NCBI GenBank assembly: GCA_009928645.1
Contig: SACH01000004.1
Location: 1-64,000 of the forward strand
From: Gammaproteobacteria bacterium
GTDB taxonomy: Bacteria; Pseudomonadota; Gammaproteobacteria; Chromatiales; Chromatiaceae
Length of the DNA: 64,000 nt
Direction of reading: 5' to 3'
Shown: positions 35,344-37,190 of the stretch, piece by piece
How positions within the stretch are numbered: position 1 is the stretch's first letter
Layout of the letters: the number at the start of each line of letters is the position of its first letter
Made by a program: the position numbers and the translations under genes
The notes under the pieces: generated by a model
Told to the model about the DNA's origin: nothing
Database searches by the model: none
The model's input: the letters and a program-made list of their open reading frames with translations, nothing else

Positions 35344-35928
35344 ATGGCCGGCATGAAAATGCGATTACACCCGCTCTATAAAAAACTGCTCCTGCTAGCC
35401 ATCGTGCTGGGCCCCCTCTACTGGCTCGTCCTCACCGAGGACGGCCAGTTGCGCGTGGACGCCGTCCTCCTGACCCTGGCCGGGGAGCCGGAACTCAATC
35501 TGACCATCGAAGGGCTGAACAGCGAGCTTACGGAAGCGCAGTTTCACCAGCTTTTTCCCGACTTGGCGCTGGACTGCGCCCCGGCCGCGACCCCCTTTGG
35601 CGATCGGGCCTGCCGAATGGAGATTGGCCTCTTCAACACGGTGCCGGCGCGGGCTTTTACCCTCTATCTGGTGGGTGACCGGGCGCGGGCGGTGCGGGTG
35701 GATTACCGTCCCCGATCCCAGGGGGCGCTGGAGGCGCAGTTGCGGCACCGCTTGGGGGTGACCGGCCAGCGGGACCCCGAACACCCCGATGCCCAGACCT
35801 GGCGGGTCACCGATGGCCTGGTGCTGATGCCCGCCGCCCAGCCCAAGGACCCGAGCCAGGCCGCCCTCTTCTGGCTCTCCGCCGCCGCACTCAGCCAGGT
35901 CAAGGAACGGGGGGTGGTCGCGCAGTGA
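35344..35928 (+). CDS. Hypothetical single-TM protein
   Basis: Open frame with N-terminal hydrophobic segment KLLLLAIVLGPLYWLVL; coherent acidic C-domain. Confidence 0.65.
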   Translation: MAGMKMRLHPLYKKLLLLAIVLGPLYWLVLTEDGQLRVDAVLLTLAGEPELNLTIEGLNSELTEAQFHQLFPDLALDCAPAATPFGDRACRMEIGLFNTVPARAFTLYLVGDRARAVRVDYRPRSQGALEAQLRHRLGVTGQRDPEHPDAQTWRVTDGLVLMPAAQPKDPSQAALFWLSAAALSQVKERGVVAQ

Positions 35929-36201
35929 ATGGCCCGCCTGGTCCCGGTTACCTCCCTTGGGCTGGTGCCAGGTGCGGACCCGTCCAGAATCCCTCCCGGG
36001 TGCATCGCAGTCTGTTAACGGGGCCTAGTCGTTACCCGTCCTCACCCTACCCATACCCTCTCCGGGCGCATCACGGTCTGGGACCCGTGTGGAACCTCTC
36101 ATCGGGCACACCCGGGCGGGGAATCGATGCGCTGGATTTCTCTCCTGTCAGCGGCAACCGGCTGGCTGACGGCTCTCAACCCATGCTCAGGAGTATCACT
36201 C

Positions 36202-36501
36202 ATGGCGAACGAAGGCTATCACGAACCCGTGGCGGAACTGTCGGACGAAACTCGCGACATGCACCGGGCCATCATTTCCCTGATGGAGGAACTGGAGGCG
36301 GTGGACTGGTACAACCAGCGCGTCGATGCCTGCAAGGACAGCGAACTCAAGGCCATCCTCGCCCATAACCGCGACGAGGAGAAGGAGCACGCCGCCATGG
36401 TGCTGGAATGGATCCGCCGCCGGGACCCCAGCTTCGACCATGAATTGCGCGATTATCTGTTCACCGACCAGCCCATCGCCCACGAGAAGGGGGCGCATTA
36501 G
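36202..36501 (+). CDS. Encapsulated-ferritin-like (EncFtn) protein, stand-alone
   Basis: 99 aa: ETRDMHRAIISLMEELEAVDWYNQRVDACKDSELKAILAHNRDEEKEHAAMVLEWIRRRDPSF...YLFTDQPI; matches the recalled EncFtn core including the two-helix EExEH iron site. Confidence 0.88.
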   Translation: MANEGYHEPVAELSDETRDMHRAIISLMEELEAVDWYNQRVDACKDSELKAILAHNRDEEKEHAAMVLEWIRRRDPSFDHELRDYLFTDQPIAHEKGAH

Positions 36502-36627: not shown

Positions 36628-36849
36628 ATGATGACATACGTTAATGCACGCGTTCAGAAGCATCGCGATGCCCTTCGCCGGGCAGGACTGCGGCCGGTGC
36701 AGATTTGGGTCCCCGACACTCGACAGCCAGACTTTGCCGAGGAATGTCGTCGCCAGGCGCGACAGGTCGCGCTTGCGGATAGGGCCGACAGCGAACTGCG
36801 GTACCTCATGGATGAAGCTTTGGCGGATATGGATGGCTGGACGGCATAG
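36628..36849 (+). CDS. MazE-like antitoxin (DUF3018 family)
   Basis: NARVQKHRDALRRAGLRPVQIWVPDTRQPDFAEECRRQARQVALADRAD; stop overlaps the downstream toxin start. Confidence 0.88.
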   Translation: MMTYVNARVQKHRDALRRAGLRPVQIWVPDTRQPDFAEECRRQARQVALADRADSELRYLMDEALADMDGWTA

Positions 36850-37190
36850 TGCGCGGTGATCTGGTCACGGTTGCCATGCCTGGCAAATTTGGAAAACCCA
36901 GACCTGCGTTGGTGATCCAGTCCGACCAATTTGATGAGCACCCCAGTGTCACCCTGTTGCCGGTGACGAGCACGCTCGTCACCGTTCCGCTCTTGCGCAT
37001 CACCCTTGAGCCAAGCGAAGAGAATGGCTTGCAGAAGATTTCACAGGTGATGGTGGACAAAGCCATTACGGTGAAGCGGGACAAGGTGGGTACGGCTTTT
37101 GGTCGCATTGATCCGAAGGTGTCGCTTGAGGTGGAACGTTGCCTCGCCCTGTTTTTTTGGCATTGTGACGTGAATCATTGCGCGTCTTGA
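36849..37190 (+). CDS. MazF/PemK-like type II toxin
   Basis: RGDLVTVAMPGKFGKPRPALVIQSDQFDEHPSVTLLPVTST...KISQVMVDKAITVKRDKVGTAFGRID. Confidence 0.92.
   Translation: MRGDLVTVAMPGKFGKPRPALVIQSDQFDEHPSVTLLPVTSTLVTVPLLRITLEPSEENGLQKISQVMVDKAITVKRDKVGTAFGRIDPKVSLEVERCLALFFWHCDVNHCAS

What the first reader, a model, noticed from the sequence alone, without database searches (positions are those of the whole stretch)
36202..36501. Orphan encapsulated-ferritin protein without encapsulin shell gene or cargo-loading tail
Seen: a 99-aa protein with the EncFtn core (MEELEAVDWYNQRVDA...AHNRDEEKEHAAM) that stops at ...IAHEKGAH, with no visible hydrophobic cargo-loading peptide. Known: characterised EncFtn proteins usually carry a C-terminal targeting peptide and sit next to an encapsulin gene. 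Here the downstream neighbours are a MazEF-like pair and an M1 peptidase, and no shell gene was recognised in the window. Inference: a free-standing EncFtn ferroxidase acting outside a nanocompartment, or one loaded in trans.
Basis: partly seen in the sequence, partly recalled or inferred. Interest (0 to 1): 0.65.

Follow-up and report, generated by a model that had tools for sequence, protein, structure and literature searches.

The report
Shell-less encapsulated-ferritin-type protein (s-FLP)
The gene encodes a small iron-oxidising protein of the 'encapsulated ferritin' family that has no protein shell to live in; this turns out to be the commonest form of the family in these bacteria, and in many relatives it sits inside a hydrogen-peroxide-defence operon, which points to a job outside any nanocompartment.

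Summary
Window 36202-36501 (+) encodes a 99-aa EncFtn-family protein (PF22277, E 5.6e-45) with every ferroxidase residue, no targeting peptide, and no encapsulin gene in its own genome or in a complete genome of the same genus. It is not a rarity or a damaged cargo gene. It belongs to a class already named 's-FLP' (crystal structure 3k6c, NE0167, 84% identical, no tail). I found a clean split: 0 of 179 shell-less copies carry a targeting motif, against 33 of 34 copies next to a shell. In a class-wide sample, 83 of 103 copies stand away from a shell, and 79 of the 83 genomes holding such a copy have no encapsulin gene at all. Loading in trans is therefore unlikely as the general rule. New here: s-FLP is the third gene of an RBR-RFO-sFLP-DUF3501 operon (the aerobic-type rubrerythrin cluster) in 20 of 83 class-wide copies from 16 families and in 36 of 116 same-family copies. 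Shell-linked copies are there 0 times in 36. In the window's genus the gene stands apart from that cluster. Best reading: a cytosolic decameric ferroxidase that removes Fe(II) during oxidative stress. The oxidant, the assembly and the fate of the iron are inferred, not shown.

The parts
36202..36501 (+). s-FLP gene: 99-aa shell-less EncFtn-family ferroxidase
   Evidence: PF22277 E 5.6e-45 and TIGR04535 over cut-off; 3k6c chains are the best sequence match and the best fold match, 84% identity, rmsd 1.1 A; AlphaFold2 mean pLDDT 91.7 with helices 15-43, 47-74, 76-85, 92-97
36286..36312 (+). Codons E29, E30, E32, W36 and Y37: first half of the ferroxidase and metal-entry site (R. rubrum E31, E32, E34, W38, Y39)
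   Evidence: Aligned to Rru_A0973; 98-100% conserved in 179 shell-less copies, 97-100% in 34 shell-linked copies; residue roles from PMC5012862
36364..36390 (+). Codons H55, E59, E60, E62 and H63: second half of the ferroxidase site and putative exit site (R. rubrum H57, E61, E62, E64, H65)
   Evidence: 98-100% conserved in both groups; R. rubrum E62A abolishes activity (PMC5012862)
36466..36498 (+). C-terminus ...DQPIAHEKGAH: conserved I-A-H end in place of a targeting peptide
   Evidence: 0 of 179 shell-less copies carry a targeting motif against 33 of 34 shell-adjacent copies; position 94 is H in 89% of shell-less and E in 97% of shell-linked copies; last residues pLDDT <50
36189..36193 (+). 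Ribosome-binding site AGGAG
   Evidence: Sequence, 8 nt before the ATG
36140..36201 (+). Conserved leader just before the start codon; function unknown
   Evidence: 58 of 62 bases identical to the congener G110, compared with 275 of 300 in the gene; otherwise absent from 55 relatives

Best explanation
The gene encodes an s-FLP: a two-helix EncFtn-fold subunit that pairs to form a di-iron ferroxidase site and very likely assembles into a decameric ring, as NE0167/3k6c does. It works in the cytosol, not inside an encapsulin. It most likely binds and oxidises surplus Fe(II), using O2 or H2O2, to limit Fenton damage under oxidative stress. Its open ring cannot hold a mineral core, so the Fe(III) is probably handed on or kept as very small amounts. 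Shown here: family, intact active site, absence of tail and of encapsulin gene, shell-less kin as the majority form, and a repeated operon link to rubrerythrin, RFO and DUF3501 in relatives. Inferred: decamer, ferroxidase activity of this very protein, oxidative-stress role in this genome, fate of the iron.
For: Profiles and fold. All catalytic, entry and exit residues 98-100% conserved in shell-less copies, and R. rubrum EncFtn is a proven ferroxidase without its shell (PMC5012862). No encapsulin in the own genome or in the complete congener. Class-wide: 103 EncFtn copies, 20 beside a shell, 83 not; 79 of 83 genomes with a shell-less copy lack PF04454 altogether, while all 19 encapsulin genomes have a copy beside the shell, tailed wherever it could be read whole. 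Same-family sample: 97 of 113 such genomes lack PF04454. Tails: 0/179 against 33/34 with motif. The window row falls in an all-shell-less clade of 98 rows (SH-aLRT 85); TP and shell-less labels need 4-6 changes against about 28 when shuffled. Oxidative-stress link: gene order RFO-sFLP-DUF3501 on one strand in 30 of 30 loci, with RBR upstream in 17 of them; 20/83 class copies from 16 families, 36/116 family copies, 0/36 shell-linked copies; s-FLP and DUF3501 co-occur (odds ratio 4.2, p 3e-8). Other close neighbours include 1-Cys peroxiredoxin (3), catalase (2) and ferrochelatase (1).
Against: In this genus the s-FLP is not in that operon. The complete congener keeps RBR and DUF3501 on another contig, and the window's draft shows neither, so a stress role here rests on relatives. 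Most s-FLP copies (about 70-75%) are outside the cluster and have mixed neighbours. R. rubrum EncFtn showed no peroxidase activity and, without its shell, precipitated iron (PMC5012862), so a shell-less one needs some other outlet for Fe(III). Decamer, activity and expression of this protein were not tested. The co-occurrence test ignores phylogeny.
Confidence: 0.7

Rival explanations
1. s-FLP is a dedicated fourth part of the aerobic-type rubrerythrin system: it takes electrons from the RFO Fe-S protein, or works beside rubrerythrin, so that H2O2 is consumed by its di-iron site (a peroxidase, or H2O2-driven ferroxidase), rather than serving general iron handling.
For: Fixed gene order RBR-RFO-sFLP-DUF3501 in all loci seen, in 16 families; operon membership changes about 16 times on the tree, so the link recurs or was lost repeatedly. 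Which oxidant EncFtn prefers is stated as unknown (PMC7762939). A Dps has been reported in a similar cluster (PMC7852563).
Against: Most s-FLPs, this one included, are outside the cluster; 25 of 83 s-FLP genomes have no DUF3501 at all; R. rubrum EncFtn had no peroxidase activity.
Confidence: 0.2
2. s-FLP is loaded in trans into an encapsulin encoded elsewhere, through an unrecognised short C-terminal signal.
For: The 2024 review leaves this open, arguing that an 8-aa linker is enough in fusion forms (PMC11202242). Some genomes hold both an s-FLP and a shell (13 same-family genomes with an intact shell, 4 in the class sample).
Against: 79 of 83 and 97 of 113 genomes with an s-FLP have no PF04454 gene. 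In genomes with both, an intact shell sits beside its own tailed EncFtn. Neither this draft nor the complete congener has a shell. Family 2 shells were searched with PF19307 and not found, but no control rang, so that result says little.
Confidence: 0.04
3. A former shell cargo that recently lost its tail and shell and is decaying.
For: Cargo and shell-less forms share a core (mostly 54-70% identity) and both exist in this bacterial family.
Against: The ORF and all catalytic residues are intact; it is 95% identical to the congener's protein with the same kind of end; 98 rows of its clade are all shell-less; no shell remnant at the orthologous site.
Confidence: 0.03

Closest known systems
s-FLP class; NE0167 of Nitrosomonas europaea, PDB 3k6c (Eren et al. 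2024, PMC11202242; called non-encapsulated by Giessen and Silver 2017 as cited there)
   Same: Same length class, 84% identity, same fold, same tail-less I-A-H end, same ferroxidase residues
   Different: Four extra C-terminal residues (KGAH). Otherwise a plain member
EncFtn cargo with targeting peptide (FLP-TP): R. rubrum Rru_A0973 (5da5), H. ochraceum (5n5f)
   Same: Same core fold and same metal-site residues
   Different: No 20-58 aa tail with a motif such as LTLGSLK or LGIGSLK, no adjacent shell gene, differing residues at positions such as 28, 57, 58, 81, 84 and 94
Aerobic-type rubrerythrin cluster RBR-RFO-DUF3501 (Cardenas et al. 2016, PMC5114695)
   Same: In many relatives the s-FLP is the third gene of this cluster
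   Different: In the window's genus the s-FLP is elsewhere; that paper's main text names only the three genes and 'HYP'
Dps, ferritin and bacterioferritin cages
   Same: Di-iron ferroxidase chemistry; Dps also guards against Fe plus H2O2
   Different: EncFtn forms an open ring, not a cage, so it cannot store a mineral core by itself

Membership tests
EncFtn (PF22277 / TIGR04535) | Profile score over the curated cut-off | tested here: met
   151.5 against 27 bits; 141.1 against 125 bits
EncFtn (PF22277 / TIGR04535) | Ferroxidase ligands E32, E62, H65 and Y39 (R. rubrum numbering) | tested here: met
   E30, E60, H63 and Y37 present by alignment
EncFtn (PF22277 / TIGR04535) | Two long antiparallel helices plus a short third helix | tested here: met
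   AlphaFold2 pLDDT 91.7; best PDB matches 3k6c, 5da5, 5n5f
EncFtn (PF22277 / TIGR04535) | Fe-dependent decamer with ferroxidase activity | not testable with these tools
   Needs purified protein; inferred from 3k6c and R. rubrum work
Encapsulin cargo (FLP-TP) | C-terminal targeting peptide | tested here: not met
   Ends 5 aa after core position 94, no motif
Encapsulin cargo (FLP-TP) | Shell gene next to it or in the genome | tested here: not met
   No PF04454 in own genome or complete congener; own draft is 92% complete
s-FLP (short, tail-less EncFtn) | About 95-100 aa, no tail, groups with NE0167-type proteins | tested here: met
   99 aa; 3k6c best match; all-shell-less clade
RBR-RFO-sFLP-DUF3501 cluster | Gene lies between RFO and DUF3501 on one strand | tested here: not met
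   Not in the window; congener has RBR and DUF3501 on another contig; neither found in the own draft

The most novel reading that the evidence does not exclude
EncFtn-type rings act mainly without shells in Gammaproteobacteria (GTDB sense, betas included), and s-FLP is an unrecognised fourth member of the aerobic rubrerythrin peroxide-defence system, working as an H2O2-linked Fe(II) oxidase in the open cytosol.
Probability: 0.3. Interest if true: 0.62.

Novelty: new member of a known kind. Interest (0 to 1): 0.45.

Why it matters
The family is named and taught as encapsulin cargo, and EncFtn is said to need its shell for iron storage. The counts here suggest that, in one large bacterial class, most members have no shell at all, so the family name misleads annotation (TIGR04535 calls this protein 'encapsulin-associated'). 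They also bear on a question that a 2024 review leaves open: whether s-FLPs are encapsulated. The operon link gives a concrete, testable function for s-FLP and a possible fourth partner for the RBR-RFO-DUF3501 system, whose electron path and DUF3501 role are unknown.

Tried and rejected
Recent tail loss by frameshift: rejected (congener has the same kind of end, and the clade's 98 rows are all shell-less). Hidden shell nearby: an encapsulin model built from relatives, run over the stored s-FLP loci, found none beside s-FLP genes. Family 2 encapsulin search with PF19307: no match, but no control rang, so not used as evidence. A conserved partner gene shared by all s-FLPs: none; the first clustering showed only small groups (Pst-PhoU in 7 loci, MscS in 5, the RBR group in 6), and Pfam on close neighbours then brought out RFO and DUF3501. 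MazEF as a functional partner: rejected, since the pair is missing at the same site in the congener. Promoter and terminator scan around the gene: nothing useful. Rfam and tRNA scans of the window: no hits. Pasteurella PMCNA_RS00975 paper: about a putative encapsulin-like protein in a prophage island, not about EncFtn. My first impression that the leader is far better conserved than the gene was too strong: 58/62 against 275/300.

Full report
What is there. The ORF at 36202-36501 (+) encodes MANEGYHEPVAELSDETRDMHRAIISLMEELEAVDWYNQRVDACKDSELKAILAHNRDEEKEHAAMVLEWIRRRDPSFDHELRDYLFTDQPIAHEKGAH, 99 aa, with AGGAG eight bases before the ATG. It matches PF22277 EncFtn-like at E 5.6e-45 and passes the curated cut-off of TIGR04535. 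The best solved relative by sequence is 3k6c, protein NE0167 of Nitrosomonas europaea, 95 aa and also without tail. An AlphaFold2 model (mean pLDDT 91.7) matches 3k6c first (84% identity, 1.1 A), then the R. rubrum and H. ochraceum encapsulated ferritins.

Active site. By the alignment, R. rubrum positions E32, Y39, E62 and H65 (ferroxidase centre), E31 and E34 (entry) and H57, E61 and E64 (exit), as listed in PMC5012862, correspond to E30, Y37, E60, H63, E29, E32, H55, E59 and E62 here. All are conserved in 98-100% of 179 distinct shell-less copies and 100% of 34 shell-linked copies. The protein is therefore equipped as a ferroxidase; activity itself was not tested.

Neighbourhood. Upstream lies an unassigned gene at about 35356-35925, and further on an epimerase and RdgC. 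Downstream are MazE-like and PemK genes and an M1 peptidase. A genome of the same genus (G110) keeps the same order, but there the s-FLP and peptidase stretches are separated by about 210 bp, against about 720 bp in the window, and the MazEF pair is missing. The toxin-antitoxin pair is thus a local insertion, or a loss in the congener, not a partner. The s-FLP looks monocistronic here.

Shell. PF04454 finds nothing in the own genome; there is one EncFtn copy. The assembly is a 92%-complete draft, but the complete congener G110 gives the same answer. In 195 genomes of the surrounding order sample (all from one family), 132 EncFtn copies were counted over the cut-off (the weakest, cage-ferritin-like matches left out); 16 lie beside an encapsulin and 116 do not. 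Of 113 genomes with a shell-less copy, 97 have no PF04454 match anywhere. The 13 same-family genomes that have both an intact shell and an s-FLP also have a separate tailed EncFtn beside the shell. In a class-wide draw of 369 genomes, 103 copies were counted, 20 beside a shell; 79 of 83 genomes with a shell-less copy have no encapsulin, and all 19 encapsulin genomes have an EncFtn beside it.

Tail. In the loci held, 179 distinct shell-less copies end a median of 1 residue after core position 94 (at most 9, except two with 26 and 28), and none has a targeting motif. Of 34 shell-adjacent copies, tails are 20-58 residues and 33 carry the motif; the other is at a split encapsulin locus (L198) (sequences). 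The sample was partly chosen by similarity to the window protein, so the ratio of the two classes should be read from the genome draws, not from this set. On trees of the 88-column core the two labels cluster strongly (4 to 6 changes against about 28 in shuffles), and the window protein lies in a clade of 98 rows that are all shell-less (SH-aLRT 85). With so few columns most forks are unresolved.

Operon link. Pfam on close same-strand neighbours showed a CCG-domain Fe-S protein and DUF3501 as the commonest families, followed by MscS, 1-Cys peroxiredoxin and catalase. Models built from these genes show one arrangement, RFO-sFLP-DUF3501 on one strand, in 30 of 30 loci that hold at least two of the partner genes, with rubrerythrin upstream in 17; most of the other 13 have only about 1.5 kb of flank, too little to show it. 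In the class draw, DUF3501 lies within 2.5 kb of 20 of 83 shell-less copies, in 16 families, and of none of the 20 shell-linked copies; in the family draw the figures are 36 of 116 and 0 of 16. By chance two single genes would lie this close in about 0.15% of genomes. Presence of s-FLP and of DUF3501 are associated (58/25/101/185, odds ratio 4.2, p 3e-8, no correction for kinship). The RBR-RFO-DUF3501 cluster is known as the aerobic-type rubrerythrin system (PMC5114695), and a Dps has been reported with it (PMC7852563). I found no paper in the held library that names an EncFtn-type protein as part of it; subscription papers are mostly not held. In the window's genus the cluster is on another contig, and neither RBR nor DUF3501 was found in the own draft.

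How it probably works. From established work, EncFtn without its shell oxidises Fe(II) but cannot mineralise iron (PMC5012862), and whether O2 or H2O2 is preferred is unknown (PMC7762939). Put together with the data above, the likeliest role is a cytosolic ring that takes up and oxidises surplus Fe(II), limiting Fenton chemistry, with Fe(III) passed on. The step from 'ferroxidase site present' to 'oxidative-stress role' rests on relatives' gene order and is an inference for this genome.

Verdict. It is an ordinary member of a class already named s-FLP. What is worth following is not the window copy but the class: its large shell-less majority and its place in the rubrerythrin operon.

Noticed in passing
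window 36628-37190: MazE-like/PemK pair is absent at the same site in the congener G110 (about 720 bp against about 210 bp between the s-FLP and peptidase stretches): a recent insertion here or a loss there.
   Followed up: partly
window 36140-36201: Leader before the s-FLP start is 58/62 identical to G110 and contains GTCAGC...GCTGAC inverted arms; not found in other relatives.
   Followed up: partly
L040, L056, L128, L138, L140, L141, L142: s-FLP lies just downstream of a PstS-like/Pst/PhoU-type phosphate operon on the same strand in seven loci (assigned by eye from sequence and order), a possible iron-phosphate link.
   Followed up: no
L205:2464-2832: Shell-less EncFtn with a 29-aa Lys/Ala/Pro-rich tail and no targeting motif; no encapsulin found in that genome.
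   Followed up: no
L117, L118, L119, L122: Partial or broken encapsulin genes in same-family genomes; in three of these genomes (G192, G071, G093) the s-FLP remains but no tailed EncFtn was seen, suggesting shell loss with s-FLP kept.
   Followed up: partly
L193:1453-2928: EncFtn core and the encapsulin C-terminal part run together in one open frame (genome G389), perhaps a deletion fusion or an assembly fault.
   Followed up: no
L124:1500-1795 (own genome, contig C544): A ferritin-like frame matching only the second half of PF00210, the only ferritin match over cut-off in this genome; N-terminal half missing or mis-assembled.
   Followed up: no
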